From Brooklawnia propionicigenes (GTDB lineage: Bacteria; Actinomycetota; Actinomycetes; Propionibacteriales; Propionibacteriaceae), in contig NZ_AP028056.1 in the NCBI RefSeq assembly GCF_030297015.1, positions 2,552,939 to 2,616,938 of the forward strand: a DNA stretch of 64,000 bases. The letters run 5' to 3'. Shown one piece after another: positions 32,117-47,812 of this stretch. Numbering within the stretch: position 1 is the stretch's first letter; every line of letters starts with the position of its first letter. The notes under the pieces were generated by a model, which saw only the letters and a program-made list of their open reading frames with translations, was not told the origin of the DNA and did no database searches. Made by a program: the position numbers and the translations under genes.

Positions 32117-33239
32117 GTGGAAACCGTCGTTGGTACGTTATATGAGAGGTCTCGAGAGAAGTACTCCGTGTCGCTGCTCGGGGGTGAGAATGGCCTAGCC
32201 AACTCGGCATCCTGGGTGTACTTGGCCGAGGATATCGGCAACGTTTCATTCCTTCGCGGAGGAGAGTTCGTCTTGACCACGGGGTTGTTCGTGAAAGCAG
32301 ATGTCACGCTGCGTGACTTTGTGGAAGCGCTCGCTCTGCGCGATTGCAGCGGCGTTCTGGTGAATATTGGCCCCTATCTGACCGAGCATGATCTGACGCA
32401 GGATATCTGGGATTTCTGTGATGCCAACAGCCTTCCTCTTTTCGTCATGCCGTGGGAGATTCATCTCGTCGACATCATGCAGGAGTTGTCGGCGATGCTC
32501 CTGCAGGAGCAGCAGCGGATGACCAGCCTGAACGCTGCCTTTGAGGCGGCGTTGTATCAGACGCCGGTACCGGAGGTCGTGCTCCAAGGCCTGCGGCATT
32601 TTGGGTTCGAGGAGCACGCTTCCTATCGGGTTGCGGTGATCCACAATCTGGCGATTCCGGCCAAGGTGTCCTCGCCGCTGAATCGCCGCCGGATGCGTTA
32701 TCACCTGTTTCGTCACAACAACCTGCACGTGCTCATTCACCGCATCGATCAACAGTCGCTGTCGCCGGATGAACTGGTCGACCTTGCGTGTTACTGCGAT
32801 GCGGTCTCGATGGGGGTGAGCGGGCCGGTCGACGGCTTGCATCAGCTCGGAACCGGCTACCGCAGGGCGCGCTTCTCGTTGTCGATGGCCGAATTGTGGC
32901 AGCGCTCACCCGTTCGTTGGCTTCGAGGAGATGGGCATGCTCCAGTTGCTGTTCGGGGTCTCGGACCTGTCGTTGTTGGAGGACCTCTGCGATCACTACC
33001 TCGGCCCGCTGGAGGACTACGACCAGCTGCACGACACCGACCTCGTCCATACCTTGAAGGTGTTCCTGATCTGCGACTGCAACCTGGTCGAGACCGCGCT
33101 GCGCCTGCCGGCGCACCGCAACACGGTGGTGTACCGCGTCCGCCGGATCAAGGAGGTGCTTCAGCTGAACATCGACCAGGCGACGGTGAAGTTCAACCTC
33201 CTCCTGGCGCTCTACATCCGCGAGTACCTGTCGATGTGA
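32117..33239 (+). pseudogene. PucR-family transcriptional regulator split by a +1 frameshift
   Basis: The first part (32117 to about 32910) carries a PucR N-terminal ligand-binding domain (GEFVLTTGLFVKADVTLRDF, CSGVLVNIGPYLTEHD) and the middle region. The rest of the protein continues in the +1 frame from about 32905: FEEMGMLQLLFGVSDLSLL, then the C-terminal PucR helix-turn-helix HTLKVFLICDCNLVETALRL and HRNTVVYRVRRIKEVL, ending at the stop at 33239. Removing one C from the CCC at about 32908-32910 joins the frames as RSPFVGFEEMG, which restores the family sequence. This could be a true inactivating mutation, programmed shifting, or a sequencing error. It probably controls the divergent aminotransferase operon. 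The GTG start follows AAAGGGG. Confidence 0.82.
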
Positions 33240-33424
33240 GGCAGCGGGTCTGGAGGGATTGCCGGTGCCGGCGCGCGGTATTCGCTAAGGTGTCAGTGTC
33301 AACCAGCGCATGTGATCGGGACCGGGGCTGATCTGGGTGACTGGTCAGCGTTGACCGTGTGCTGCCGCCCCTGATTTCGGGCCGACATGGCTAATTCGGC
33401 AGGTATTCACTTGAAGGAGAGATA

Positions 33425-34882
33425 ATGACAACCCACGATCCGGCGATTCCCTCGACAACGGAATCTGGTGCGCCTCGCGAATCCGATGCACATTCGTTGA
33501 GCGTGGGGCCCGACGGCCCGCTCATGTTGCACGATGTAGCCCTCGTTCAGAAACTTGCCCGCTTCGACCGCGAACGGGTTCCGGAACGTAGCCCGCACGC
33601 AAAGGGCTCCGGCGCTTTCGGTGAGTTCGTTCTCACGCAGGATGTTTCCGCATACACCAAGGCCGATTTCCTTCAGCCTGGCCGGCGGACGAGGACGCTG
33701 ATGCGTTTCTCGACCGTCGCCGGCGAACTCGGCTCCCCGGATACCTGGCGGGACGTCCGCGGCTTCGCGATGCGTTTCTACACCCAGGAGGGAAACTTCG
33801 ATCTGGTCGGGAACAACACGCCCGTCTTCTTCGTGCGTGACCCGATGAAATTCGCCGATTTCATTCATTCGCAGAAGCGCCTGCCTGACTCGGGTCTGCG
33901 CTCGAACAACATGCAGTGGGATTTCTGGACACTGTCGCCGGAGTCCGCGCACCAGGTGAGCTACCTCATGGGGGATCGCGGGCTTCCGAAGACGTGGCGC
34001 AATATGAATGGCTACTCCTCGCACACCTACATGTGGATCAACGCGGCCGGGGAGCGCTTCTGGGTGAAGTATCACGTCCACACCGATCAGGGTGTGGAGA
34101 ACATTACGAACGCGGAGGCAGCCAAACTCGCCGGTGACGACGCAGACTTCCATCGCAGGGATCTGTTCGACGCGATCGAACGCGGCGATTACCCGAGCTG
34201 GACGGTGAGCGTTCAGATCATGCCGTACGCCGAGGCGAAGACCTACCGCTTCAATCCGTTTGATCTGACCAAGGTCTGGTCGAAGAAGGACTACCCGCTG
34301 CACGAGGTGGGACGCATCACGTTGAACGAGAACCCGACGAATCACTTCGCGCAGATCGAGCAGGCAGCGTTCAGCCCGTCCAACATGGTGCCCGGAACGG
34401 GAGTGTCGCCGGACAAGATGCTGCTTGCGCGGGTCTTCTCCTACCCGGACGCCCAACGCAATCGGGTGGGCACGAACTACAACCAGTTGCCCGTGAACGC
34501 GCCGGTGGTGCCCACGAACTCCTATGACAAGGAGGGGCAGATGCAGTACGACCACAGCGGCGCAGCGCCGGTGTACGCGCCGAACTCGTATGGGCGTGCC
34601 TACCAGGACGAGCAGGGTCCGGTCGAAAACGGCTGGGAGTCCGACGGTGAACTGATTCGATCCGCCTACACGCTGCACGCCGAGGACGATGACTTCGGTC
34701 AGGCGCACACCCTGGTGCGCGAGGTGTTCTCGGAAGAGCAGCGGGAGCGCTTGGTGGAGACCGTCGTCGGCGCGCTCGCCGGGGTCATGGAGCCGGTGCT
34801 GTCACGCGTCTTCCAGTACTGGAAGAACATCGATCAACAAGTCGGTGAGGCGATCGAAGCCAGCTATCGCGCCGCCAACTAG
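33425..34882 (+). CDS. katA: Monofunctional haem catalase
   Basis: This 485-residue clade 3-size catalase dismutates hydrogen peroxide. The catalytic histidine is in [16 protein letters not shown] (His58), the catalytic asparagine in [13 protein letters not shown], and the proximal haem tyrosine in [35 protein letters not shown] is the family signature. The ATG at 33425 follows GAAGGAGAG. It stands alone with its own terminator. No regulator or ferritin gene is adjacent, and I could not identify an OxyR/FurA box in the 185-base upstream region. Confidence 0.97.
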
Positions 34883-34887
34883 GCGAT

Positions 34888-34925
34888 GGGCGGGAGTCGC
34901 TACGGCGGCTCCCGCCCGGCTTTTC
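34888..34925 (+). terminator. Rho-independent terminator of catalase
   Basis: GGGCGGGAG (34888-34896) pairs with CTCCCGCCC (34909-34917), followed by GGCTTTTCT. It begins six bases after the catalase stop and is the most classical terminator in the window. Confidence 0.88.
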
Positions 34926-35001
34926 TAACGCGTCTGTTCATCGGCCGACGGTGTCGTCGCCGCTGCTGAAGCCCGGGATCGGTCGCTGCCTCAGCCCCAG
35001 A

Positions 35002-35017
35002 CCTGACTTCCACAGGT
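35002..35017 (+). repeat. Left terminal inverted repeat of the IS
   Basis: These 16 bases match the reverse complement of 36668-36683 exactly; the match does not extend further on either side. Confidence 0.92.
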
Positions 35018-35094
35018 GGGCGTGTTTCGTGATTGTTTGTGCTTGTCAGGGGCTTGCGGTGGGTGGTTTTGGGGCACTAACGGGCGGTTAGAAT

Positions 35095-35110
35095 CGGGCT
35101 TGTGAGCCCG
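35095..35110 (+). promoter_or_regulatory. Hairpin enclosing the transposase start codon
   Basis: CGGGCT (35095-35100) and AGCCCG (35105-35110) form a 6-bp GC-rich stem with a TGTG tetraloop. The GTG start codon at 35102-35104 is inside the loop, so folding should block initiation and limit transposase synthesis. This is a prediction from sequence only. Confidence 0.5.
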
Positions 35111-36667
35111 TATCTGCGGAAAGTGAAGACCCGGTCTGGTGCGACCGCGGTGCAGATCGTGGAAAAGAGGCATGGCCAGCGAGTGATCGTGGAGCATCTG
35201 GGGTCGGCCCATACCGACGCCGAGCTCGCGGCGTTGATGCGGGCCGGCCACGACAAGCTTCACGCCGGCCAGCCCGCCTTGGAGTTGGGTATCGATCCCC
35301 ACGGCGTGCCGGTGGGTGCGGTCGCGGTAGTCGCCGGGACACGATCGAAACTCCTGATGGATGCGATCCGGGCCTCCTGGGGCCGGCTCGGGTTCACCGT
35401 GATCGATGACGAGGCGTTCTTCCAGCTGGTCGCAGCCCGGCTCGTCGAGCCGACCTCGAAACGCGACAGCATCCGGGTGATCAACCAACTCGGCATGCAC
35501 GCGTTCCACGAGAACACCTTCTACGCCGCGCTGCGTCGTTGCATGGCTGGTGACTACCGCGAACAGATCGCGAAGGCCTGCTTCACCCACGTGTGGACCG
35601 ACGCTGGCGGGGACATCTCCTTGCTGCTCTACGACGTCACCACGCTGTATTTCGAGGCCGAGAACGAAGACGATCTTCGCAAAGTCGGCTTCAGTAAAGA
35701 GCGTCGTGTCGATCCGCAGATCGTGGTCGGGCTGCTCGTTGACCGGAGCGGGTTCCCGTTAGAGATCGCCTGCTATGAGGGTAACAAGGCCGAGACTGCC
35801 ACGATCATCCCGATCGTCAAAGCGTTCCAAGACCGTCACCAGATCACCGACATGGTCGTGGTCGCCGACGCCGGCATGTTGTCCGCGACCAACCTGCAAG
35901 CCCTCGACGATGCCGGGCTCCGGTTCATCGTCGGGTCCCGGGTCACGAAAGCACCCCACGATCTGGCCAAGCATTTCTGCTGGCACGGTGACCACTTCAC
36001 CGACGCCCAGATCATCGACACGATCACGATGCGCCGCACCAAACCCGACCCGGCCAGGCTCGACACCTGCGACGAGCCGGTGTGGAACCCCCAAGCCCAT
36101 CCGCTAGCGTGGCGGGCGGTGTGGCAATACTCCCGCAAACGGGCCGTCCGGGATCAACACACCCTGACCGCGCAGCAGAACCGGGCCCAAGCGATCATCG
36201 ACGGCCTCCACCCGCCCCGTAAGGCCAGATTCTTGAAGACCAGCGGGGCCACGCTCACCCTTGATCACACCAGCCTGGACCGGGCACGCCGACTCACCGG
36301 CCTGAAAGGCTACGTCACCAACATCACCGTCGACACCATGCCCGCCGACCAGGTGATCTCGGCCTACCACGAACTGTGGCACGTCGAGCAATCCTTCCGG
36401 ATGTCCAAAACCGACCTCGCTGCCAGACCGATCTTCCACCACACCCGCGACGCGATCGAAGCCCACCTGACCATCGTGTTCACCGCGCTCGCGATCGCCC
36501 GCGACCTACAGGCCCGCACCGGCTGGAGCATCAAACGCATCATCCAAACCCTCCAACCGCTACGCCACGTCACCATCACCATCAACGGTCACCCGATCGA
36601 AGCCCAACCCGCCATCTCCGACAACACCCGAGAAATCCTCAACACCCTCGGGATTCCCGAGCACTAA
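35102..36667 (+). CDS. IS1634-family DDE transposase
   Basis: This 521-residue transposase opens with SPYLRKVKTRSGATAVQIVE, typical of IS1634/IS1549 transposases. The catalytic triad can be placed as Asp in LLYDVTTLYFEAE, Asp in VVVADAGMLSATN and Glu in YHELWHVEQSFRMSK. The gene fills the element, with its stop immediately before the right inverted repeat, and no frameshift or internal stop is present, so it may be active. GC content is similar to its host, suggesting a vector used to similar genomes. Confidence 0.93.
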   Translation: MSPYLRKVKTRSGATAVQIVEKRHGQRVIVEHLGSAHTDAELAALMRAGHDKLHAGQPALELGIDPHGVPVGAVAVVAGTRSKLLMDAIRASWGRLGFTVIDDEAFFQLVAARLVEPTSKRDSIRVINQLGMHAFHENTFYAALRRCMAGDYREQIAKACFTHVWTDAGGDISLLLYDVTTLYFEAENEDDLRKVGFSKERRVDPQIVVGLLVDRSGFPLEIACYEGNKAETATIIPIVKAFQDRHQITDMVVVADAGMLSATNLQALDDAGLRFIVGSRVTKAPHDLAKHFCWHGDHFTDAQIIDTITMRRTKPDPARLDTCDEPVWNPQAHPLAWRAVWQYSRKRAVRDQHTLTAQQNRAQAIIDGLHPPRKARFLKTSGATLTLDHTSLDRARRLTGLKGYVTNITVDTMPADQVISAYHELWHVEQSFRMSKTDLAARPIFHHTRDAIEAHLTIVFTALAIARDLQARTGWSIKRIIQTLQPLRHVTITINGHPIEAQPAISDNTREILNTLGIPEH

Positions 36668-36683
36668 ACCTGTGGAAGTCAGG
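36668..36683 (+). repeat. Right terminal inverted repeat of the IS
   Basis: Perfect partner of 35002-35017. The stop codon TAA of the transposase lies directly beside it. Confidence 0.92.
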
Positions 36684-37129
36684 AGGCTCGCTCCCGGCCC
36701 AAACCGCCGTACCAATTCTGACTCAAAGTTGATAATGCAGGCGTGAGCTTCGGCTGCCGTCGCAACAAGGACCGAGTCTTGATAGCGATGCTCGACATGG
36801 TTACGCAGGCCGATGAAGAATTCGATATTCTTCCGGATCGGATCGTTATCCTTGAACTCGTGTTTCAGGCACTGGCTAAGATCCCATGTCTTCTTTGAGT
36901 CATCGGGGTTGCGCTTAAAGGTGCGCCGCTTGTCATTCTCTCTATAGAAGATCTCAACCTTTCGGCGCATCCGATCAGCGTGCATCAGGTTCTGCCATGC
37001 CAGGTGAATGTGGACTATGAAGTCAGCGAAGCTGCGTCGGTCACCCGGGCGATTGTAGAAGTCGATCGCCACCAGCGCTTGTCGACGTGCTTCCTCAAGG
37101 GTGTGCTTCCACGCTGGGGGTCTAGCCAT
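36684..37129 (-). pseudogene. DUF3644 (HEPN-like) gene truncated by the IS
   Basis: The surviving 148 codons start at the ATG at 37129 and run into the IS right end. MARPPAWKHTLEEARRQALV and DFIVHIHLAWQNLMHADRMR match the DUF3644 N-terminus. IEFFIGLRNHVEHRYQ contains R-N-H-V-E-H (Arg109, His114), an Rx4H motif of the kind used by HEPN-fold ribonucleases. The next about 40 in-frame codons come from the IS and are not native. The gene is 43 bases downstream of the Res stop in the same direction, so it was the last gene of the restriction operon. Its GC is visibly lower than its surroundings. Whether the fragment retains function is doubtful. Confidence 0.78.
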
Positions 37130-37172
37130 GGATCAACAGACTTTCTGTCGAGAGTCGGAGCGGGACAATGAA

Positions 37173-40100
37173 TCAGGCGGTAACCAACTGCATCAGCTCT
37201 GTGTAGTCGGTGACGACGTCGTAGGTGACGTCGCGCCCGTTCTTCTTGTTGAGGGAGGCAAAGAACTTGCGGGCGCACTCGATCTTTGCGTCCTCGACGC
37301 CCTTCAGCTGGAGAGTTGAAAGTGAACCCTTGGTCTCCGCGACGAAGTAGACATGCTTGACGCTGCCTTCCTTGAACGCGATAGCCCAGTCCGGGTTGTA
37401 GTCCCCGACCGGAGTTGGGATGAAGAACCCGCGCGGGAGCTTCGCGTAGACGGCGACCTCGGTGCTAGTGTCCAGCTCGTTGACGAACGCACGCTCGATC
37501 TTCGAGTCGGTCACGACGTAGTCGTAGATGTGCTTCGTGAGCTTGGTACCCGCGTGGGTGAGATCTTGCTTAGTCTGGTTCTCCGTGAAGATCGCCGAGT
37601 CGAACGTCTCGTCCAGAGCGTCGTACGCGAGGTGCTCCACGATGACGGTGGCCTTCTGCTCGTTGATCAGCCGGGCAGCCTCGGTGATGAACTGTTCCGG
37701 GTTCAGCCTGAACTTCCCGAACGTATCCGGTCGGACGCCCTTGAGGATCGCGGCGACTGTACGGCGGGTCAGCTTCGTCTTCTCGGCGATCTCCCCGAGA
37801 AGGTCGTACTTCACCTGAGAGCCAGCCGTCACCGTCTCGGTCACGGTCTCCGTGGTGGAAACCGCGAATCCTGAGCCCTTCGACAGGTCGTCGGCCTCCA
37901 GCTCGTCACGCTGCTTGCCCGATTGGATGACGTACTGCATGGACGCGACGTTGAGATGCTTGTCCATGTGGTCGACCGCCTTGCGGATCAATTCGTCTGA
38001 GTCGAACTCCACCTGGTAGACCGCCTTATGGTTGATCCGACCCCACAGGCTCTGGAACTCCTTGCGCGCGAAGTTGGCCTCGTTAAGGGGGATCTTCTTC
38101 GGCTTGCGGTCATCGACGGGCTTGGGTACGTCGATGTACAGGGAGTCGACCAGCGGCCAGACGAAGTCCACCACCGGACGCAAGACCTCCGAGGTGGGGA
38201 CAGCGAGCGTCCCTTCAGCCTTGGCCTCCTTGTAGGCGGGTGTGATGTGACCGTCGTCGTCGATGTAGTCGTTGCGCGCCAGATAGTTGTAGATGGACCG
38301 GGCCAGTTGCTCCTCCACGACCGACTCGCCTGCGGTGGTCTGGATCGTCTTGCCCGTGAAGAAGTCGACACTCGCCTTGCGCGGACGCGCCGCCAAGGAC
38401 TCCGAAATCTCCTTCTGGAGCCCATCGACGAAGTCCGTGTAAGACTCGTCGGTCACAACTGTCAGCTCATTGATGTCATGAACCCGAGCGCCCACAGTAG
38501 CCTCGTCCATACGCTCACCGTGCTGGTCGACAGCCAGCCGGAGTCCTCGCCCGATCTCTTGGCGTCGCGACACCGTGTTGTCGCTCTTCTTCAGCATCCC
38601 CATCACGAACACGTTCGGGTTGTCCCATCCCTCCCGGAGGGCCGAGTGGGAGAAGATGAACCGGACCGGCTCGTCGAAGGAGAGGAGCCGTTCCTTGTCT
38701 TTGAGGATCAGGTCGTAGGCGTCGATGTCGGTGGACTGACCCTTGTCATCGCCGCGCCCGGAGACCTTGCCGTCCACCTGGTGCTTGGTCTTCTTATCGA
38801 TCGAAAAGTAGCCCTGGTGGATCTCGCGCACCTCGTCACGACGCAGGTAGGCCTGATAGGCGGCGGTCGCGTCATCGAGGGCCAGCTCGCCCAGGACCTC
38901 GTCGCGGATCAACGCGTATTCTTCCTCGAACACGCGTGCGTACTCGCCGAGGGTGTCCTCCCGGGAGTAGTCGCGGTACTTCGCGACTTCGTCGATGAAG
39001 AACAACGACAGCACCTTGATACCTTGGGCAAACAATTCGCGTTCCTTGTCCAGGTGGGCACGGACCACCTCCCGGATCTGGATGCGCCGCTTCGTCTCCT
39101 CCGTGACATCGCGGTCGGCAAGCTGCCCGGCGAAGACCGTGTCGCCATTGCTCAGCTCGATCACGTCGCGGTTCGCATCGATATCGACGACGACTAAGGA
39201 CTTACCGTCAGGCCGGTAGGCCTCCAGCCCGTTCGACAGGTCATGGAGGTTCGTGCCCTTCTCCACCCGCTTGACCTGCCGCTTGATGCCCGTCTTGGTC
39301 TGGACCTCGATCTCCACTCGGGCCCGCGGTAGCACGCCCTTTGCGATCTCGATGCCCTCCACGTACAGGTAGGCGGCCGAACCGGCCAAGCCCTTCACCG
39401 TGATGCCCCGCACGGCGATCTTCTTGACCAGCTTCTGGTTGTAGGCATCCAGCGCGTCCAAGCGATGGACCTTGGTGTGCTCAACCTTGTGAGTGGCGGA
39501 GTACCGCAACATCATCAGCCCGTTGAAGTTCGACAAGGCGTTCAGTGATTTCTCCGCGCTGATCTTCTGCGGTTCGTCGATGATGACGATCGGCCGGTTC
39601 GCGGCGATCACATCGATGGGCTTGCGTGACTGGAAGTCGTCCAGGACGTCGTAGATGCGGCGGTTGTCCTTGCCCGTAGCGTTGAAAGCCTGGATGTTAA
39701 TAATCATCACTTGAACACCTGCATCCGAGCTGAACCGCTCCAGCTCATGCAGTTGCGATGAGTTGTAGACGAAGGACCGCGGCTTGGTGCCATACATCTG
39801 CTGAAAGTGGTCAGCAGTGACATCAAAGGACTTCTTCACGCCTTCTCGGATCGCTATCGACGGCACCACGATGATGTACTTCGACCAGCCGTACCGCTTG
39901 TGAAGCTCCATGATCGTCTTGATGTAGACGTAGGTCTTACCCGTGCCCGTCTCCATCTCCACATCCAGATTTGGTGCATGCAGCGCCGCCTTGCTGTCCC
40001 TCAACTCCGTCGAAAGCGGAAGATTCCGAGTCCGTTGGACCTTCTGGACGTTCGATAGCAACTGCGCGTCGTTCAGGACGATCTCAGCGTTGCGCAAACC

Positions 40101-40271
40101 CGAATCCGGTCGCTCGTCAGTCTCAAACAGGGCAGGAGCTGCCACCGGACTAACCTTGCCCGGGTCAATCCGGTACGAGATTCCCTCGTGCTTCGGCTGC
40201 CCCTCGAACACCTCGACGACTGCGTCGACCGCATCCGTCTGGTACTGCTGAACCTTGAACTGGAGCTTCAT
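37173..40271 (-). CDS. Type III restriction-modification system, Res helicase-endonuclease subunit
   Basis: This 1032-residue protein translocates along DNA using ATP and cuts when two complexes meet or when sites are unmethylated. Walker A is METGTGKTY (about residues 106-114) and the superfamily 2 Walker B is IIDEPQKIS (232-235 DEPQ), a form typical of Res subunits. A motif VI candidate is QEIGRGLRLAVD. The C-terminal nuclease is a PD-(D/E)xK fold: NPDWAIAF (Pro960-Asp961) and FVAETKG (Glu979-x-Lys981). The ATG at 40271 lies five bases after the mod stop. All key residues are intact. Confidence 0.93.
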   Translation of the reverse strand: MKLQFKVQQYQTDAVDAVVEVFEGQPKHEGISYRIDPGKVSPVAAPALFETDERPDSGLRNAEIVLNDAQLLSNVQKVQRTRNLPLSTELRDSKAALHAPNLDVEMETGTGKTYVYIKTIMELHKRYGWSKYIIVVPSIAIREGVKKSFDVTADHFQQMYGTKPRSFVYNSSQLHELERFSSDAGVQVMIINIQAFNATGKDNRRIYDVLDDFQSRKPIDVIAANRPIVIIDEPQKISAEKSLNALSNFNGLMMLRYSATHKVEHTKVHRLDALDAYNQKLVKKIAVRGITVKGLAGSAAYLYVEGIEIAKGVLPRARVEIEVQTKTGIKRQVKRVEKGTNLHDLSNGLEAYRPDGKSLVVVDIDANRDVIELSNGDTVFAGQLADRDVTEETKRRIQIREVVRAHLDKERELFAQGIKVLSLFFIDEVAKYRDYSREDTLGEYARVFEEEYALIRDEVLGELALDDATAAYQAYLRRDEVREIHQGYFSIDKKTKHQVDGKVSGRGDDKGQSTDIDAYDLILKDKERLLSFDEPVRFIFSHSALREGWDNPNVFVMGMLKKSDNTVSRRQEIGRGLRLAVDQHGERMDEATVGARVHDINELTVVTDESYTDFVDGLQKEISESLAARPRKASVDFFTGKTIQTTAGESVVEEQLARSIYNYLARNDYIDDDGHITPAYKEAKAEGTLAVPTSEVLRPVVDFVWPLVDSLYIDVPKPVDDRKPKKIPLNEANFARKEFQSLWGRINHKAVYQVEFDSDELIRKAVDHMDKHLNVASMQYVIQSGKQRDELEADDLSKGSGFAVSTTETVTETVTAGSQVKYDLLGEIAEKTKLTRRTVAAILKGVRPDTFGKFRLNPEQFITEAARLINEQKATVIVEHLAYDALDETFDSAIFTENQTKQDLTHAGTKLTKHIYDYVVTDSKIERAFVNELDTSTEVAVYAKLPRGFFIPTPVGDYNPDWAIAFKEGSVKHVYFVAETKGSLSTLQLKGVEDAKIECARKFFASLNKKNGRDVTYDVVTDYTELMQLVTA

Positions 40272-40276
40272 ATCGG

Positions 40277-42232
40277 TCAGATCGCCCTCACTTCAGTGGA
40301 TGGAGACAGCTCCCGGAAAATCTGTTCGGTATTGATGCGGGCAGCATCCGATCCGAACGCGTCGTCGCGGAAAACGACACGCAACGGGCCCCTCTCGGCG
40401 ATCGCTCGCGCGACTTCGGGAGTCATGGACTCCGTGAAACACGCAATCAGCGCACCATCGTCAACGACGAATACTTCGTGGCCATCAACATCGTCGCGCG
40501 TGATCGAAAGCGATAGTTCAAGGCCCCAGTCAAGAAGCACCTGGAACAGCAGGTCTTCCCCCGATCTCCCCGACCGAATGCTTCCTTCTAAGTTGCCGAT
40601 CTGGAGCTGTGCAGTTTCCTCGGGAGAGCGCAAAACGTCAACCTTGTTTGAAGAGTCCACGCGTAGGTATCGAAATCCACCATCGAGTTCGGAAGCCACA
40701 AAACCGCCGCCGTCAGAAAGCTGATTTGCGGCTCTACGCACACGTTCGCTAGCCATGTCGGCGAGATGCTCGAACTCTGCTGGCACTCCCTTTACGGCCG
40801 TGTCAATTTGCTCAGGAAGCTGAACTAGTATGAATTTTCTCTTCTGCCCATCCTTGGCATTCTGCGCAAGCGTAGCATGTGCGGCCGTTCCTGAACCGGC
40901 GAAATAGTCGAGGACAATCGCATCTTCGGGTGCTGCTGCTGCAATTAAGAGCTGAATCAGCGAAACAGGTTTAGGGTAACTGAACTGGCTGGATGTGAAT
41001 CCAATTTGCTCGATATCCTTTGTGCCCTGAGTCGTTGAAATTCCCATGATCAGGTCCTTGAGCGACGTAGAGTCGACATTTCGAACCTTTGTGTAGACTC
41101 TCCATCCTGAAGTTGTCTCGACAAACTCCAAGTCTTGCGACTCAGACTCCACCTTCGAAGCGCTCCATCGGAATGCGTGGTACTTGTGCACTCCATCACC
41201 ATTGGCATGCGGCGAGATCTTGACAAACTCGGGAAACTTGTGGCTCTCAGAAACGGGAGCGGTCCTAACCTGTCGGTCGTGCGGATTAAAATAGATGTCG
41301 AATACTAGATTGGGGCGCGTTTCTTCATTGAATGCCGAATTTGTATTGTATAGCTCATTCTTTGTTACATATGGACCAAACGCGTCAGACTTGATTTCAT
41401 AGTTGAAACCCTTGTAGATCGACGGCATAATCGTCTTGGACTCAGACCCTGAGACGAGAAACTCAGACACGAATTCGGCATTCCGCGCGTAACATAATAT
41501 GTATTCCTTTGTTCCAGCCGCACCGCTCTTGGAGATCTGCCTTCCCTTTAGATTGCTTATCCAGACGAAGGCGTTGAGGAAATTTTGGGCGCCGAAGACC
41601 TCATCCAGAATCTTCTTGAGGTTCTCATACTCGTGATCATCGATAGAGACAAAAAAGACTCCGTCGTCCGTCATAAGATTACGAGCCAGCTTGACCCGCG
41701 GGTAAATCATACTCAACCAGTCCGAGTGGTAGCGACCGTTGGCGTCAGTATTCGCCACGAGGCGCACACCTTCATCGTCGACCTGCCCCGAGCGGTTAAG
41801 AAAGGACTCCGTTGATTCGGCAAAGTCGTCGTCGTATATGAAGTCATTTCCTGTGTTGTATGGCGGGTCGATGTACACGAAACCGACCTTCCCCAGGTAG
41901 GACTCTTGGAGAAGCTTGAGGGCGTCGAGATTGTCCCCCTCGATGAAGAGGTTCTTGGTGGTGTCGAAGTCGACTGACTCCTCGCGGACCGGTCGTAAGG
42001 TCTTGGCGACGGGCGCGTTGGCGGCGAACGCTGCGGCGCGCTTGCCAGGCCAGTCCAACCGGTAGCGTTCTTGGGGTCCTTCGACGATGTGGTCGGAGAG
42101 TTCCTGGCGGAGGAGGTCGAAGTCCACGGCGCGCTGGGGGTTGCCGTTGTCGTCGAGCGTCTCGGTGACAACGGTTGGGAACAGGTCGGCGAGTTTGTCG
42201 ATGTTCGCCTCTGTCAGGTCGGGCGATGTCAT
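40277..42232 (-). CDS. Type III restriction-modification system, Mod DNA methyltransferase subunit
   Basis: This 651-residue beta-class N6-adenine or N4-cytosine methyltransferase recognises the target for both methylation and restriction. The catalytic motif is VYIDPPYNTGND (DPPY at about 122-125) and the AdoMet motif LDYFAGSGTAAH (444-448) comes later, which defines the beta class. The target recognition domain lies between them at about residues 225-410 (41000-41560) and is clearly richer in A+T than the conserved ends. I prefer the ATG at 42232 after GGAGAAA over a GTG at 42247. It starts 29 bases after the DUF4391 stop. Confidence 0.93.
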   Translation of the reverse strand: MTSPDLTEANIDKLADLFPTVVTETLDDNGNPQRAVDFDLLRQELSDHIVEGPQERYRLDWPGKRAAAFAANAPVAKTLRPVREESVDFDTTKNLFIEGDNLDALKLLQESYLGKVGFVYIDPPYNTGNDFIYDDDFAESTESFLNRSGQVDDEGVRLVANTDANGRYHSDWLSMIYPRVKLARNLMTDDGVFFVSIDDHEYENLKKILDEVFGAQNFLNAFVWISNLKGRQISKSGAAGTKEYILCYARNAEFVSEFLVSGSESKTIMPSIYKGFNYEIKSDAFGPYVTKNELYNTNSAFNEETRPNLVFDIYFNPHDRQVRTAPVSESHKFPEFVKISPHANGDGVHKYHAFRWSASKVESESQDLEFVETTSGWRVYTKVRNVDSTSLKDLIMGISTTQGTKDIEQIGFTSSQFSYPKPVSLIQLLIAAAAPEDAIVLDYFAGSGTAAHATLAQNAKDGQKRKFILVQLPEQIDTAVKGVPAEFEHLADMASERVRRAANQLSDGGGFVASELDGGFRYLRVDSSNKVDVLRSPEETAQLQIGNLEGSIRSGRSGEDLLFQVLLDWGLELSLSITRDDVDGHEVFVVDDGALIACFTESMTPEVARAIAERGPLRVVFRDDAFGSDAARINTEQIFRELSPSTEVRAI

Positions 42233-42261
42233 GCGCAGTTTCTCCACTTTCTTGCCTCTGC

Positions 42262-42933
42262 CTATCTTTCACTCAGCGCAGTCAGTTGTGCTTGTTTGGT
42301 CTTGAGGGTGCGGCGCAGTTCGATCTTGCGGTTGAACTGCTTCTCGGTGCGGAGCTTTCGCTCCAGTGTCTTGATCTCGCGTTCGAGCTTGCCGATGGTC
42401 TTGAGTCTGTCAGCGACCTCTGACATTCCTTCTTCTGGACGGACCTCGACGTTGGTGAGGGGTTCGAGCAGAGCCGCATAGAGGGTCGTCAACGTGATCG
42501 CGGTCGGTAGCGGTTGGCGCTCGGTGTCGGCTGGTAGCCACGCGGTGCTGAAGTACTGGCTGATTTTCGGTGCGCCCGTGCCGAGTTGCTTGTGGGCTGC
42601 GACCATGCGATTCTCGCGCGCACCAGCGATGTCGCGGCTGATTTCGAAGACGAGTGGGCGGGGCATCGACGTGTCGATGGCGCTGAGGACCGGTTCGGAA
42701 ACGTCAGCGCCCTTCGCATCGATTTGGAAGACAGCGATGTCAGGGACTTCGTCGGTACCCGCCAGGTTGATCGTCGCTTCAGCTAAGTCGTAGGCCCACG
42801 TCACGCGATCGACCTCGGAGATGAACTTCTCCCGCAGCGCAGTATTGACTCGGGCGTGTTCGTAGAACTTCTCCTTGGGCACGCGTCGTCCGAAGTGGGC
42901 GGCGTTTGGCCACCGGTACAACACGTCAGTCAC
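42262..42933 (-). CDS. DUF4391 domain protein
   Basis: This 223-residue protein has no known activity. It begins TDVLYRWPNAAHFGRRVPKE, includes RVTWAYDLAEATINLAGT and PDIAVFQIDAKG, and ends in a charged coiled coil of about 50 residues (KLEREIKTLERKLRTEKQFN). DUF4391 proteins are repeatedly seen beside a SNF2-type helicase and type III RM genes, which fits here. The GTG start at 42933 overlaps the helicase stop by eight bases, and GAGGAGG lies about eight bases upstream. It probably makes a complex with the helicase or Mod through the coiled coil; this is inference. Confidence 0.8.
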   Translation of the reverse strand: MTDVLYRWPNAAHFGRRVPKEKFYEHARVNTALREKFISEVDRVTWAYDLAEATINLAGTDEVPDIAVFQIDAKGADVSEPVLSAIDTSMPRPLVFEISRDIAGARENRMVAAHKQLGTGAPKISQYFSTAWLPADTERQPLPTAITLTTLYAALLEPLTNVEVRPEEGMSEVADRLKTIGKLEREIKTLERKLRTEKQFNRKIELRRTLKTKQAQLTALSER

Positions 42934-45900
42934 GGTCGCTCGCCTCCTCGGTGGAGGGGACGACGGCGATGAAGGCGGTGAGTTCGAAGTCGTCGAGTCC
43001 AGCGATGGTCTGTGTGAGGGCGGTGGTAGGCCCTGGGGTGAACAGGCTGTCGATGTCACGTTCCTCGGTGACGTCGATCATCGAGTGGATCGCGTCGGTC
43101 AGCAACTGTGAGTATGCGTCCATGTCGGCACCGTCCCGGGTCGCTTGGTTGAATGTGCGGACCGCACTAGCCACCGGTTGATCGTAGGGGCGGCACCCCG
43201 TGCGCAGGAGGTCGAGGAGATGCTTGGCCTCCGTGTGGTCGGCGACCACTTCGCCATCCTGGTCGAGGTAGACGAGGTAGTGCGGGTGGAGGCGGTTGCC
43301 ACGGTTCATGTGCTCGTCCGCGTTGACGTTGCGCAACGCGAAGATCACGCCGGGTAGCAGTCCCTTACCCGGGTCGGCGGGGACCACGGCATGCAGACCC
43401 TTCGGCACCGCAGCAAGGTCACCGTACTGCTTGATGTAGCCGAGCAGGTCCATGCGGAAGTCGTTGAGTCCGAGGTCCGTGATCGACACACCAGTGCGGA
43501 CGTCTTCCAGCTCGATGACCTCGTCCTGGAGCTTGCGGAGCTGCTCCTTGCGGAAGGCTGCGTCAGGGTCTTCTTGGGTCAGGACATTGTCGTCGGCGGT
43601 ACCAGCGATGTCAGCGATCACCATACGGTTCTCGACACGTTCCTTAAGGTTGATGTACTCGTCCAAGGAGATGTCGGGCCAGAAGTTCACCAACTGGATG
43701 ACCCGGTTGGTGGAGCCGATGCGGTCGATACGTCCGAAGCGCTGGATGATGCGGACCGGGTTCCAGTGGATGTCGTAGTTGATGAGGTAGTCGCAGTCCT
43801 GGAGGTTCTGCCCCTCGCTGATGACATCGGTGCCGATGAGTACGTCCAGCTCACGGGTCTCCCCGGGCATGGTCACGTCTCGCTGTTTGGAGCGCGGGGA
43901 GAACAGGGACATGATCTGCTGGAAGTCAAACCCCTTCCCCAGTGTCGTGTGGGCGCGGTTGCCGCCCGTGATGACTGCCGTCTCTATGCCCGCGGCGGCT
44001 AGAGCAGGGGCCAGGTTTGCGTAGAGGTAGTTGGTGGTGTCGGCGAAGGCGGAGAACACCAGGACCTTGCGGTTGCCGGGGTTGATCGGATGCTGCTCTT
44101 TGGAACGGATGATGTCCTTGAGCTTGCGGAGCTTGAGGTCGTGCTCGGGGGTGACCTTGCTCATCTCGTCAAGGAGTTCACGCAGGGTCTCACGATCGTT
44201 CCACAGGTCCCGTTGCCAGGACTCGATGTCAAGGTCGTCCAGGTCGATGCGGATCTTCTCGCCGAAGGAGAGTGCCTCGATGTTGGCGTCGTCCTCGTCG
44301 TCGATGTCGAAGTCCTGGCCTGCCATGTCTGGGACGAGGTCGGCAAGGTTTCCGGCGTGGTTGCTGATCCGGGACAGAGTGTGGGTGACGGAGTCCTGCA
44401 CCTTGCCCAGCGTGAGGCGGAACGCCTCCACTGAGCTTTCCAACCGTTTTAGGAGGTTGACGGTCATCAGCTGTTTGAGGCCTTGCTCGCGGCCTGCCTG
44501 CCCCAGATTCGACCGGGCAGTGCCCGCGGTGACGTCGTAGAGGTCCTCGTACTTGCTGCGACGGGAGGGGAAGACATAAGCCAACGGGGTGTAGACGGCC
44601 AACGTGAGTGCCTGAAGCTGCTCAAAGATGTCGTTGAAGCCCGGCACATCCGGCAGGTCGGTGAGCGGTTCACGCACGGAGATGGGCGTGAGGCGTTCGG
44701 GGAAGGCTCCGATCTCGCTGGTGTCGTAGAAGGCCTGGATATGTTTGCGGGAACGCGCAATCGTCACCGAGTCCAGAAGTTCGAAGAAGTCGAAGTCCAA
44801 CATTTTCAAGATCTGGTCCGTGGTGCGCGCCTCTGGATCCAACTTGGACCATTCGTTGAAGACACGTTGGGCGTCAGAGAAGACTTTCTCCACACTGGTG
44901 GAGATGTTCAGATGCTTGGCGAGGTTCTCCGACTCACCCTCATAAGCCAGTTGGAGCTGGTTCTTCAGGTCGTTGAACCGGTTGTTCACCGGGGTTGCCG
45001 AGAGCATCAGCACCTTGGTCTTCACGCCCTCCTTGATGACCTGGCGCATGAGACGCTGGTAACGCGACTCCTTCTCCTCGGCATAGTCGGCATTGCGGAA
45101 GTTGTGCGACTCGTCGATCACGACCAGGTCGTAGTTGCCCCAGTTGATCCGGGACAGGTCAAGGCCGAGGGATTCGCCCCTGGTCCGGGACAGGTCGGTG
45201 TGGGCGAGGACATCGTAGGCGAAGCGATCCTCGCGGAAGAGGTTGGTGGTGTAGTTCGAGTTGTAGTTGGTCCAGTTCTCCGCCAGCTTTTTGGGACAAA
45301 GGACCAGCACACTCTTGTTGCGCAGCTCGTAGTACTTGATGACCGCCAACGCGGTGAACGTCTTCCCCAGACCGACGGAGTCGGCCAGGATACAGCCGTT
45401 GTAGGTCTCCAACTTGTTGATGATGCCCGTGGCCGCGTCACGCTGGAAGTTGTACAGGCTCTTCCAGACCTTCGTGTCCTGGTAGCCAGTGCGGTCGTTC
45501 GGCAGGACATCCTCATTGACATCGTCGAGGAAATCGGCGAACAGGTTGTACAAGATCAGGAAGTAGATCCGCTCCGGGGAGTTCTCCGCGTACACGGTAG
45601 CGATGTGGTCGCAGACCGCTTGCGTGACATCGTCAAGCTGGTCGGGGTTGTTCCAAATCTGATCGAACAGGGCCAGGAACTGCTGAGTTTCCGCAACGCC
45701 CTCATATTTAGGAACGTAGTTGGAGATAGCCGGGCCCTTCTCGTAGCCCAAGTCGGTGGTCGTGAATCCCTGAATCGGGAAATAGGCGGCGCGGTCATCC
45801 ACCGCTGCCAACGGCTGCATCGGGTTGCCCGTCGCGTTGGAGCGGAAGGTCACCTTGCGACGCACCCAGTCCGCGCACTCCCGAGCGATAGCCTTCTGCG

Positions 45901-46207
45901 TGAGCTTGTTGCGCAGCCGGATCTCAAACTCGGACCCGGCGATTGCTGACTCGGCGTGCCCGGCTGGGATGAAGAACTGGCGGCGCTCCTTGCGGACCTT
46001 GTCCGTCACGTCCTCGGCGACGAACGAGGGGGAGGTGAAGATGAACTCCAGCTCACCGACCTGTTCCAGTTCCTTCTTCAAGGCCTCGAAAGCGAAAATG
46101 GAGAACGTGGAGGCAGCGATGCGGACCTTGGATCCGGGGGCGATGACGCTCTTGAGGTCGTCACCGAGGAGGTCGGTGGTGTTGTTGATGATACGCAACT
46201 GAGTCAC
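42926..46207 (-). CDS. SNF2/RapA-like helicase with an N-terminal PLD-like region
   Basis: This 1093-residue protein has Walker A ILADSVGLGKTFT (273-285), Walker B VVIDESHNF (363-371, DESH), motif III MLSATPVNN, motif V IGTDVISEGQNLQDCDYLIN (791-810) and motif VI IQRFGRIDRIG (821-831), the arrangement of SNF2/RapA-type double-stranded DNA translocases. Residues 1-170 resemble the phospholipase-D-like module found ahead of such helicases, but I see no HxKx4D motif, so nuclease activity there is doubtful. A long acidic linker (DFDIDDEDDANIEAL) separates the two lobes. The GTG at 46207 overlaps the HTH stop by four bases. Confidence 0.88.
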   Translation of the reverse strand: MTQLRIINNTTDLLGDDLKSVIAPGSKVRIAASTFSIFAFEALKKELEQVGELEFIFTSPSFVAEDVTDKVRKERRQFFIPAGHAESAIAGSEFEIRLRNKLTQKAIARECADWVRRKVTFRSNATGNPMQPLAAVDDRAAYFPIQGFTTTDLGYEKGPAISNYVPKYEGVAETQQFLALFDQIWNNPDQLDDVTQAVCDHIATVYAENSPERIYFLILYNLFADFLDDVNEDVLPNDRTGYQDTKVWKSLYNFQRDAATGIINKLETYNGCILADSVGLGKTFTALAVIKYYELRNKSVLVLCPKKLAENWTNYNSNYTTNLFREDRFAYDVLAHTDLSRTRGESLGLDLSRINWGNYDLVVIDESHNFRNADYAEEKESRYQRLMRQVIKEGVKTKVLMLSATPVNNRFNDLKNQLQLAYEGESENLAKHLNISTSVEKVFSDAQRVFNEWSKLDPEARTTDQILKMLDFDFFELLDSVTIARSRKHIQAFYDTSEIGAFPERLTPISVREPLTDLPDVPGFNDIFEQLQALTLAVYTPLAYVFPSRRSKYEDLYDVTAGTARSNLGQAGREQGLKQLMTVNLLKRLESSVEAFRLTLGKVQDSVTHTLSRISNHAGNLADLVPDMAGQDFDIDDEDDANIEALSFGEKIRIDLDDLDIESWQRDLWNDRETLRELLDEMSKVTPEHDLKLRKLKDIIRSKEQHPINPGNRKVLVFSAFADTTNYLYANLAPALAAAGIETAVITGGNRAHTTLGKGFDFQQIMSLFSPRSKQRDVTMPGETRELDVLIGTDVISEGQNLQDCDYLINYDIHWNPVRIIQRFGRIDRIGSTNRVIQLVNFWPDISLDEYINLKERVENRMVIADIAGTADDNVLTQEDPDAAFRKEQLRKLQDEVIELEDVRTGVSITDLGLNDFRMDLLGYIKQYGDLAAVPKGLHAVVPADPGKGLLPGVIFALRNVNADEHMNRGNRLHPHYLVYLDQDGEVVADHTEAKHLLDLLRTGCRPYDQPVASAVRTFNQATRDGADMDAYSQLLTDAIHSMIDVTEERDIDSLFTPGPTTALTQTIAGLDDFELTAFIAVVPSTEEASDRD

Positions 46208-46404
46208 TCACCCGCCTTACTGGAGCCTGAGTCAGCGGCGCCGTCGTTGCGGACCCAGTCGTCGACTTCGCTGGCCTGGAACTTCCAGAGGCGGCCGATC
46301 TTGTGGGCGGGCATGTCTTTGTCGGCGATCCACGTGTAGATGGTGTCCTTGGTGACGCCGAGATGGGCGGCGATGTCGTCTGCGGACAACCACGGCTCGG
46401 TCAC
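46204..46404 (-). CDS. Small excisionase-type helix-turn-helix protein (HTH_17)
   Basis: This 66-residue protein has the MerR/Xis-like winged helix LSADDIAAHLGVTKDTIYTW followed by DMPAHKIGRLWKFQASEVDDW, the core HTH_17 pattern. It is first in the leftward defence operon and overlaps the helicase start (GTGA). It begins at a GTG after GGGAGGACC. Proteins of this type act as excisionases or small regulators; because it heads a restriction operon, control of the operon is more likely than excision. A dyad over the promoter supports autoregulation. Confidence 0.85.
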   Translation of the reverse strand: MTEPWLSADDIAAHLGVTKDTIYTWIADKDMPAHKIGRLWKFQASEVDDWVRNDGAADSGSSKAGE

Positions 46405-46451
46405 GTTGGTCCTCCCTCAACGGTGCGGGCCCCACCGGTTGGGGAGCCGTG

Positions 46452-46469
46452 CTGATTCTACCTAATCAG
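46452..46469 (-). promoter_or_regulatory. Promoter -10 element within a dyad, upstream of the defence operon
   Basis: CTGATT (46452-46457) and AATCAG (46464-46469) are inverted repeats with a 6-base spacer. On the minus strand the -10-like TAGAAT (46455-46460) lies inside this dyad, 51 bases upstream of the HTH start codon. The -35 region is weak. A repressor or activator bound here would control the whole operon. Confidence 0.5.
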
Positions 46470-46538
46470 ACCCTGTTTGTGCGGGGATGTCCCACCGACG
46501 GCGGGTGCGTTTCGCATGCCGATGAGCGAAAATGGGGT

Positions 46539-47213
46539 ATGGAGCGAATCTTCCCTGACAGTGGGGGGACTGTCCGAGAGCGGGCGCCGGGGCCGATCGA
46601 CGTGGAGGCCGCGGTGTTCGACCACGTGGTGGAGCCGGTGGCGTACACGTGCTTGAAGTTCATGCTGTTCCGGCAGGGCGCGTGTCTGGTCCATTCCCGC
46701 CACGGCAGGGTCCACGCGCGTCCTGGGACGCTGGTGATCGTGTGCGGCGGGACGCTGTGCGGCGGCATCCCGGAGACGTCGGTGACGGTCTCGACGGCGT
46801 ACGTGAGCCTGGACTATCTGCTGGACCAGCTGACGTGGCGTCTGCATGGGATGCTGCTGGATCGTCACGAGGCGGAGCAGATCGCGGCGAGAGCGTTCCG
46901 CCACAACATGTGGGACATTGCGTTGGCACCCGAGGTGGCCAGCAAGATGGCGGTGCTCCTGGACCGGGTTGAGCAGATTCAGAAGGCTGGTGGCGGCTTC
47001 TACGCGATCGAGTCCCGATTCGTCGCCCTGCTGGACCTGCTGCTCCCGCTCCTGCCCTACACGGATATTCCGGACGGGCCGGTGCGTTCCCTGGCGGGGA
47101 ACGGTGTGGGCGGCCGGTTCCCTCCCTTGCGCCGGGAGATCGTCGACGTCGGGGAAGTTGTCCAAGCGGACCTGGCGCGCAAGTGGAGCCTGGCGGATTT
47201 GGCGGGCAGATGA
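46539..47213 (+). pseudogene. Truncated AraC-type regulator, ligand-binding half
   Basis: From the ATG at 46539 this reads an AraC-type N-terminal domain (AACLVHSRHGRVHARPGTL-like segment, VEPVAYTCLKFMLFRQG) and linker helices, then reaches RKWSLADLAG, the first helix of the AraC DNA-binding domain. The frame stops after three more codons at 47213 and the rest of the domain is missing. The truncation point joins a serine recombinase tail. No DNA-binding capacity remains. It is divergent from the defence operon. Confidence 0.7.
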
Positions 47214-47800
47214 TGAGCGAGGGCGCGGCAGAACTGGCCGAACTCGCCGCGCGCCGCACCGAACTGGAAGGCGAGCAGACCAAGCTCCTCCAGGCCCACT
47301 ATGCGGGCGCGATCCCACTGGACCTGCTCAAACGGGAACAGGACCGGATCACCACATCGTTGGAGACCATCGACTTCCGGGTCCGGGCTCACAACGGTGA
47401 ATATGCCGATGCCCGGGCCAACCTCGACGACTCGCTACTGCTGTTGGCCAACATCGCCGACATCTATGCCAACGCTGATGATGCCAACCGGCGGTTGTGC
47501 AACCAGGCCCTGTTCAAAGCCATCTACGTTGACGAGGACAACGACATCCACGTCGGCTACCGCACGCCCTACGACGGCCTGTCGAACCCCGACCTCCAGG
47601 CCGACGCCCTCACCTGGGCCGACCAAGCCCGCGCCGCAGCCACAGGGGCAGAGGCAACCGGGACACGCAAAAAGGGCCAGGCGCGAACCGCGACCAAGGG
47701 CGGACCCTTGGTCGCAAGTTCACACCTGACCCATTTGGGGTGGCTGACGGGACTTGAACCCGCGGCCGCCTGGACCACAACCAGGAGCTCTACCAACTGA
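47214..47800 (+). pseudogene. C-terminal remnant of a large serine recombinase
   Basis: In a frame different from the preceding regulator, this segment encodes AELAELAARRTELEGEQTKL, GAIPLDLLKREQDRITTSLE and LCNQALFKAIYVDEDNDIHV, the coiled-coil and end region of actinobacterial site-specific serine recombinases. The resolvase catalytic domain and zinc region are absent. The frame continues through a hairpin and antisense through tRNA-His before stopping at 47800, so the last 25 or so codons are not native. It is a scar of a former integrated element. Confidence 0.75.
47690..47715 (+). terminator. Hairpin at the end of the recombinase remnant
   Basis: GCGACCAAGGG (47690-47700) pairs perfectly with CCCTTGGTCGC (47705-47715) around a 4-nt loop. 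It lies between the remnant and the convergent tRNA-His and could stop transcription from either. Confidence 0.55.
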
Positions 47801-47812
47801 GCTACAGCCACC
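47736..47812 (-). tRNA. tRNA-His (GUG anticodon) with encoded CCA
   Basis: On the minus strand the acceptor GTGGCTG/CAGCCAC carries the extra G at -1 opposite C73, specific for histidine tRNA. The anticodon arm CCTGG-TTGTGGT-CCAGG gives GUG. The T arm CGGGTTCAAGTCCCG is intact and the 3' CCA is encoded (47736-47738). Confidence 0.95.

What the first reader, a model, noticed from the sequence alone, without database searches (positions are those of the whole stretch)
36684..46404. Six-gene defence operon: HTH, SNF2/PLD-like helicase, DUF4391, type III Mod and Res, DUF3644/HEPN-like
Six genes on one strand are overlapped or tightly spaced and share one likely promoter. Type III restriction normally needs only Mod and Res. 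Here a RapA/SNF2-like translocase and a coiled-coil DUF4391 protein lie in front, and a possible HEPN ribonuclease lies behind. The helicase plus DUF4391 could be an extra DNA-surveillance module, with the ribonuclease as a last resort that shuts down the cell if restriction fails. The component families are known and I recall the helicase-DUF4391-RM neighbourhood recurring in genomes; I know of no characterised system with all six. This is not DISARM (no DUF1998) and not BREX (no PglZ/BrxC).
Basis: partly seen in the sequence, partly recalled or inferred. Interest (0 to 1): 0.82.

Follow-up and report, generated by a model that had tools for sequence, protein, structure and literature searches.

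The report
Four-gene type III restriction variant
A bacterial DNA-cutting defence that is usually described as two genes recurs in many bacterial groups as a set of four, with toxin-like genes swapped in and out beside it; in this genome the extra gene has been cut short by a jumping element.

Summary
The operon is real. Five intact, tightly packed minus-strand genes: HTH, RapA/SNF2-type helicase, DUF4391, type III Mod, type III Res. The sixth, DUF3644, is broken: an IS1634-family element (35002-36683) leaves 148 native codons of roughly 350.

The order helicase-DUF4391-Mod-Res is not local: complete in 71 of 80 helicase relatives kept (7 of the 9 others end at a contig edge). Searches anchored on DUF4391 or on Res agree, less absolutely. 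DUF3644 is not part of the conserved order: 0 of 141 fetched loci, with a profile that finds 19 of 19 known copies.

What recurs is an exchangeable accessory slot. Four congeners with the core carry four mutually unrelated predicted RNase-type genes: DUF3644, ApeA-like HEPN (weak match), Swt1-like HEPN, Schlafen. Elsewhere the slot holds OLD, GmrSD, SIR2, RhuM or YhcG genes.

Best reading: a type III-derived restriction system with SNF2 translocase and DUF4391 as near-constant partners and a backup-effector slot. The partners' role is inferred. Nine searches of an open-access library found no description of the four-gene unit. New variant of a known kind.

The parts
46204..46404 (-). HTH_17 / excisionase-type small DNA-binding protein, 66 aa; probable regulator
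   Evidence: PF12728 E 1.5e-14; TIGR01764 55.3 bits, cut-off 28.8; MAD1 model NF047737 72.9 bits, cut-off 80; phmmer HTH hit in 20 of 80 relatives
42926..46207 (-). RapA/SNF2-type translocase, 1093 aa; Walker A residues 279-283, DESH 365-368 and R823/R826 invariant in 40 sequences
   Evidence: PF00176, PF00271; PADLOC C3a139 405 bits; invariant columns; AF2 model, pLDDT 67.5, best PDB match RapA 8spg E 4.5e-13
42262..42933 (-). DUF4391 protein, 223 aa: alpha/beta domain plus C-terminal helical hairpin with conserved E197, Q199, N201 at the turn
   Evidence: PF14335 E 2.5e-49; P9, K20, D87, Q199 invariant in 68 sequences; AF2 pLDDT 95.9; no PDB relative by sequence at E up to 1, no fold match at E up to 0.001
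40277..42247 (-). Type III modification subunit Mod, 656 aa; DPPY at 127-130, FAGS at 449-452
   Evidence: PF01555; PADLOC MTase_III 648 bits; EcoP15I Mod 4zcf E 1e-53
41050..41500 (-). Approximate recognition part of Mod (residues about 250-400), replaced between congeners
   Evidence: 0-34% identity in residues 251-400 against 78-96% in residues 1-150 and 91-94% over Res; G+C 0.53 in 40001-42000
37173..40271 (-). Type III restriction subunit Res, 1032 aa; Walker A 109-113, DEPQ 232-235, PD 960-961 with ETK 979-981
   Evidence: PF04851, PF19778; PADLOC REase_III 1094 bits; EcoP15I Res 4zcf E 8e-68; conservation over 76 sequences
36684..37129 (-). DUF3644 (HEPN family) remnant: 148 native codons, Rx4H motif RNHVEH at residue 109 kept, about 200 C-terminal residues missing
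   Evidence: PF12358 E 1.5e-34, profile 2-143 of 183; PADLOC PDC-S19 145 of 353; 89% identical over 148 residues to a full-length paralogue in the same genome (L141)
35002..36683 (+). IS1634-family insertion sequence; inverted repeats 35002-35017 and 36668-36683; transposase 35102-36667
   Evidence: NF033559 E 4.7e-123; two further whole-length copies at 99% in the genome

Best explanation
A type III-derived restriction-modification defence whose usual inherited unit is four genes: a RapA-type SNF2 translocase, DUF4391, Mod and Res. Mod methylates host sites and sets specificity through an exchangeable recognition part; Res cuts unmethylated DNA (from knowledge of EcoP15I). The translocase and DUF4391 most likely join the Mod-Res complex: DUF4391 as a small adaptor whose helical hairpin docks on a partner, the translocase as an active motor that moves along or clears DNA so that Res can communicate and cut where its own sliding does not suffice. 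A slot within or just behind the operon holds exchangeable secondary effectors; in this genus they are predicted RNases (HEPN, Schlafen), probably fired when restriction fails. Here that effector, DUF3644, is truncated by an IS, so the strain probably keeps the restriction core without its backup. Shown by sequence: composition, order, conservation, intact motifs, recognition-part exchange, slot exchange, IS truncation. Inferred: the complex, motor role, adaptor role, backup role.
For: DUF4391-anchored: 13 of 396 phylum genomes; Mod beside it in 13 of 13, helicase in 12, Res in 11. Res-anchored in another phylum: 28 of 249 genomes, 29 places; 20 stretches fetched; leaving out the centre genome (L157) and 7 cut ones, DUF4391 in 10 of 12. 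Helicase and DUF4391 genes overlap or lie within 12 nt in 66 of 71. Over 66 loci pairwise identities of helicase and Res correlate (Spearman 0.94); mean identity helicase 0.655, Res 0.605, Mod 0.499, DUF4391 0.402. Recognition-part exchange. Bare four-gene form on E. coli plasmid pLAO18 and in 10 of 5426 E. coli genomes. Slot exchange among four congeners.
Against: No activity or complex was tested. DUF4391 has no recognised fold or catalytic motif, so 'adaptor' rests on shape and conservation. The 80 loci were picked by the helicase and are its nearest relatives, which favours linkage. In the own phylum only 11 of 23 strong PF19778 places have DUF4391 (2 of the other 12 are cut; 25 weaker places were not fetched). 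In the Res tree the four-gene label needs 3 changes and sits in two places, with long branches. L017, L052 and L101 keep helicase and DUF4391 without Res; L018 keeps DUF4391, Mod and Res without helicase. The correlation has no unlinked-gene control. 33 of 71 complete loci have no gap of 330 nt or more between core genes.
Confidence: 0.6

Rival explanations
1. The helicase and DUF4391 serve modification: they are needed for, or restrain, methylation or restriction of the host's own DNA, rather than driving cleavage.
For: They sit in front of mod; tandem Mods share one helicase-DUF4391 pair (L016, L026, L034, L037, L115, L128); DUF4391-Mod-Res without helicase exists (L018).
Against: EcoP1I and EcoP15I modify without such partners (family knowledge), and type III loci without helicase and DUF4391 occur in the same phylum (L119, L120, L124, L125).
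Confidence: 0.15
2. The helicase and DUF4391 form a separate sensing module that fires the exchangeable effector; Mod-Res is a parallel arm.
For: The slot changes while helicase and DUF4391 stay. Loci without Res keep other effector-like genes: L101 an AAA_13 gene, L017 an OLD-like gene.
Against: 33 of 71 complete loci have no large gap between core genes, the bare form persists on plasmids, and helicase similarity tracks Res.
Confidence: 0.17
3. Mere neighbourhood in a defence island: an independent helicase-DUF4391 pair next to an ordinary two-gene type III system.
For: Type III loci without the pair exist; a different SNF2 helicase, DrmD, precedes Mod-Res in L116, L117, L122.
Against: Overlap or spacing up to 12 nt in 66 of 71 loci, same order across many phyla, bare four-gene form on plasmids.
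Confidence: 0.05

Closest known systems
Type III restriction-modification (EcoP1I, EcoP15I)
   Same: Homologous Mod and Res with methyltransferase, SF2 and PD-(D/E)XK motifs in place; E 1e-53 and 8e-68 to EcoP15I
   Different: Two further genes travel with Mod and Res; phage P1 Res and one other row stand apart from the other 45 rows of the Res tree (quick tree, long branches)
PADLOC model C3a139, 'HKD+Snf2'
   Same: Best PADLOC match of the helicase, 405 bits
   Different: Match starts at residue 180; no PLD domain or HKD motif found in the N-terminus; no paper with that name in the library
DISARM helicase DrmD
   Same: Distant SNF2 relative: 131 bits in PADLOC, 165.6 in NCBIfam against a cut-off of 610
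   Different: No full DISARM set; DrmD proper precedes type III Mod-Res in three separate loci
HEPN genes in R-M operons, PrrC with PrrI (PMC3710099, passages read)
   Same: HEPN RNase in an R-M operon, proposed there as second-line suicide defence; DUF3644 is listed there as a HEPN family
   Different: Here one type III core takes at least three HEPN families in the same place
BREX auxiliary and backup effectors (PMC12839542, passages read)
   Same: A fixed core with interchangeable nucleases and RNases
   Different: Different core; no PglZ or BrxC among the matches seen
Cronobacter integrative element IECsakMK101 (PMC12757443, one passage read)
   Same: Lists a type III endonuclease, a Mod methyltransferase and a SNF2 helicase among cargo genes
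   Different: No order, no DUF4391 and no system is described there

Membership tests
Type III restriction-modification | Mod: adenine methyltransferase with DPPY before FxGxG | tested here: met
   PF01555; motifs conserved over 87 Mods
Type III restriction-modification | Res: SF2 motor plus PD-(D/E)XK endonuclease | tested here: met
   PF04851, PF19778; motifs conserved over 76 Res
Type III restriction-modification | Homology to a characterised type III enzyme | tested here: met
   EcoP15I 4zcf
Type III restriction-modification | Mod and Res alone suffice for activity | not testable with these tools
   Needs deletion or reconstitution
Type III restriction-modification | Cleavage after communication between two asymmetric sites | not testable with these tools
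   Needs biochemistry
HEPN RNase (DUF3644) | Rx4-6H motif | tested here: met
   RNHVEH at residue 109; a motif near residues 91-125 in 14 of 14 longer relatives
HEPN RNase (DUF3644) | Intact gene | tested here: not met
   148 native codons, cut by an IS
HKD/PLD nuclease-helicase | N-terminal PLD domain with HxK motif | tested here: not met
   No PLD hit in 10 of 10 N-termini; no conserved HxK. The AF2 model of that part is too poor to judge the fold
DISARM | drmA, drmB, drmC (DUF1998) | tested here: not met
   Ten proteins from 33425-47800 scanned; only helicase-motor matches to DrmA and DrmD in the lists shown (25 of 47 for the helicase)
BREX | PglZ and BrxC | tested here: not met
   Same scans; only BrxHI/BrxHII helicase matches in the lists shown
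MADS | MAD1 with the other MAD proteins | tested here: not met
   MAD1 72.9 bits against a cut-off of 80; no other MAD name in the lists shown

The most novel reading that the evidence does not exclude
The RapA-like translocase with DUF4391 is a general coupling hub that turns a type III enzyme into a layered defence: it helps restriction and, when restriction stalls, licenses whichever effector occupies the adjacent slot, so that unrelated HEPN, Schlafen, OLD, GmrSD or SIR2 effectors can be plugged into one conserved trigger.
Probability: 0.2. Interest if true: 0.85.

Novelty: new variant of a known kind. Interest (0 to 1): 0.6.

Why it matters
Type III enzymes are taught as two-subunit machines, and tools name these loci from Mod and Res alone. 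If the SNF2 motor and DUF4391 are functional subunits, a widespread part of type III restriction has two unstudied components, one of them a protein with no known fold relative. The four-gene form on E. coli plasmids makes this testable at once in laboratory strains. The swap of unrelated RNase genes beside near-identical cores within one genus is a natural experiment on how backup effectors are wired to restriction.

Tried and rejected
Fixed six-gene system: rejected, because DUF3644 is absent from 141 loci and broken here. PLD nuclease in the helicase: rejected. DISARM, BREX and MADS: rejected as membership. DUF4391 as a known nuclease: Foldseek against PDB gave nothing at E up to 0.001 (best 0.07); the pdb_via library was not available. 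The helicase model (pLDDT 67.5) was too poor to judge its N-terminus. A fusion of DUF4391 in L052 was looked at for hints of function; only DUF4391 was recognised. Promoter scan uninformative. Literature: nine searches of an open-access library with no subscription journals; DUF4391 occurs in one paper, a table row only (PMC7784981, one passage). Passages only were read of PMC2292703, PMC10853773, PMC3874151 and PMC12458937; none showed this unit. REBASE and DefenseFinder could not be consulted. Rows dropped before counts: L157 (centre genome) and the cut loci L154, L160, L164, L165, L169, L172, L173 from the count; 8 cut and 26 loci without a nearby same-strand ORF.
Full report
What is there. 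On the minus strand, 46404 down to 36684, lie six reading frames. Pfam and PADLOC identify an excisionase-type HTH, a SNF2 helicase, DUF4391, a type III Mod and Res, and DUF3644. The first three overlap by 4 and 8 nt; the remaining gaps are 14, 5 and 43 nt. Mod and Res are related to EcoP15I by sequence (E 1e-53 and 8e-68) and keep their motifs. The helicase keeps its motor residues in a 40-sequence alignment and its low-confidence model is nearest to RapA in the PDB.

The sixth gene is broken. The native DUF3644 frame stops at 36684, the edge of an IS1634-family element with 16-bp perfect inverted repeats (35002-36683). I saw no target-site duplication in the flanks. Two further whole-length copies of the IS at 99% lie in the genome, so the insertion looks recent (inference). 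The remnant has 148 native codons, keeps the HEPN-type motif RNHVEH and lacks about 200 C-terminal residues; only about 120 bp separate the IS from the next gene, so the missing part is not next door. The same genome has three other DUF3644 genes with longer frames, 341, 376 and 372 aa, the nearest 89% identical over the 148 residues.

The core is widespread. DUF4391 is found in 78, Mod in 77 and Res in 71 of these 80, and all four in 71; the two loci without DUF4391 and seven of the nine without Res end at a contig edge, and only L052 and L101 lack Res with room for it. That sample is picked by the helicase, so I anchored on the other parts. DUF4391 occurs in 13 of 396 genomes of the phylum; Mod is beside it in 13, the helicase in 12, Res in 11. 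With the window's Res as query in another phylum, 28 of 249 genomes matched at 29 places; of the 20 stretches fetched, 12 could be judged after leaving out the centre genome and seven cut ones, and 10 of these have DUF4391. Against this stands the general Res endonuclease family in the own phylum: of 23 strong places 11 have DUF4391, three have a DrmD helicase instead, two are cut and seven have neither; 25 weaker places were not fetched. So type III systems divide into those with and those without the pair. A quick Res tree puts 32 of 36 four-gene rows with one other row on one branch (SH-aLRT 96) and four in a second place, with phage P1 Res far off; long branches make the deep order unsure.

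The parts travel together. Helicase and DUF4391 genes overlap or lie within 12 nt in 66 of 71 complete loci. Over 66 loci with one of each, helicase and Res identities correlate at 0.94, and the helicase is the best conserved of the four; there is no unlinked-gene control. Between the window and two congeners, Res is 91-94% and the helicase 93-95% identical, but residues 251-400 of Mod are 0-34% identical while residues 1-150 are 78-96%. I read this as exchange of the recognition part, the mark of a working restriction system under selection for new specificity (inference). The bare four-gene form sits on an E. coli plasmid, pLAO18, and relatives are in 10 of 5426 complete E. coli genomes, ten places on plasmids and one on a chromosome.

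The accessory slot. Of 71 complete loci, 38 have a gap of at least 330 nt between core genes, 34 of them between Mod and Res. Accessory genes form small recurring families: a Schlafen AlbA_2 protein in 15 loci, OLD-like ATPases, RhuM, Bro-N, YhcG nucleases, GmrSD, SIR2. Directly behind Res, 57 frames plus the window's were scanned: OLD-like 5, GmrSD 4, ApeA-like HEPN 4 (weak, E up to 0.01), SIR2 3, Swt1-like HEPN 1, DUF3644 1 (the window), and several housekeeping genes that are plain neighbours. The sharpest case is the window's genus: of 7 genomes, 4 carry the core, one of them split over contigs. Their accessory genes are DUF3644 (window), an ApeA-like HEPN protein (G401; HEPN_Apea 22.5 bits, below the cut-off of 24.4, and PADLOC Cas13-ApeA E 9e-7), a Swt1-like HEPN protein (G397; E 2.2e-17) and a Schlafen protein between Mod and Res (G399; E 6.7e-16). 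phmmer finds no similarity among the four at E up to 1; for DUF3644 the full-length paralogue stood in. DUF3644 itself is a wanderer: a profile that finds 19 of 19 known copies, 5 of them held out, finds none in 141 fetched core and type III loci. In 19 other DUF3644 loci it lies beside type III Mod-Res once (L149), and among the neighbours scanned beside Shedu-type proteins, a type I specificity and restriction pair, an Eco57I-type enzyme and a SNF2 helicase.

DUF4391. The model is confident (pLDDT 95.9): an alpha/beta domain followed by an antiparallel helical hairpin whose turn carries the conserved E197, Q199 and N201. No relative in the PDB by sequence or fold. I take it for an adaptor; a new enzyme fold is not excluded.

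How it most likely works. From EcoP15I: Mod recognises and methylates, Res uses ATP to slide and cuts when complexes meet. The conserved RapA-type motor is best explained as a second, active DNA motor of the same machine, joined by DUF4391. It may clear bound proteins, bring complexes together, or remove the need for paired sites. The accessory slot is best explained as a backup that acts when restriction is overcome, as proposed for HEPN genes in other R-M operons (PMC3710099, passages) and for BREX effectors (PMC12839542, passages). All of this paragraph is inference.

Known or new. PADLOC would name Mod and Res as type III and the helicase as C3a139; it gave nothing for DUF4391. Nine searches of an open-access library found no account of the four-gene unit; one paper lists type III and SNF2 genes together in a Cronobacter element without comment on a system (PMC12757443, one passage). 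Subscription journals, REBASE and DefenseFinder were not available, so 'undescribed' is limited to that. I file it as a new variant of type III restriction.

Noticed in passing
35002-36683: IS1634-family element; two further copies at 99% over the whole length elsewhere in the genome, so probably active recently.
   Followed up: yes
46449-47213 and 47183-47800 (+): An AraC-binding-domain gene appears cut near 47206, where similarity to congener L114 also ends; the next frame looks by eye like the C-terminal end of a serine recombinase (no Pfam hit) and lies beside tRNA-His 47736-47811. Possibly an integration scar upstream of the operon.
   Followed up: partly
32117-33331 and 32931-33239 (+): A PucR-like regulator seems frameshifted: the likely C-terminal HTH part continues in another frame (by eye).
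   Followed up: no
L116 14302-17175, L117 1714-4737, L122 1879-4767: DrmD-type helicases (581-703 bits) directly or nearly in front of type III Mod-Res without DUF4391: a second, separate pairing of a SNF2 helicase with type III restriction.
   Followed up: partly
L016, L026, L034, L037, L115, L128: Tandem Mod genes in actinobacterial loci; four of the six (L016, L026, L037, L128) also have the Schlafen gene between Mod and Res.
   Followed up: no
L052 13279-20051: DUF4391 fused to a long C-terminal extension, followed by a protein that by eye resembles the Hsp70/actin type and a large coiled-coil protein, with only a Mod fragment and no Res: the helicase-DUF4391 pair in another setting.
   Followed up: partly
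own genome C1: 1082566, 1459789, 1945585: Three further DUF3644 genes in the same genome; the one at 1945585 follows a Shedu-type gene and a DUF499-HEPN ATPase gene (L141).
   Followed up: partly
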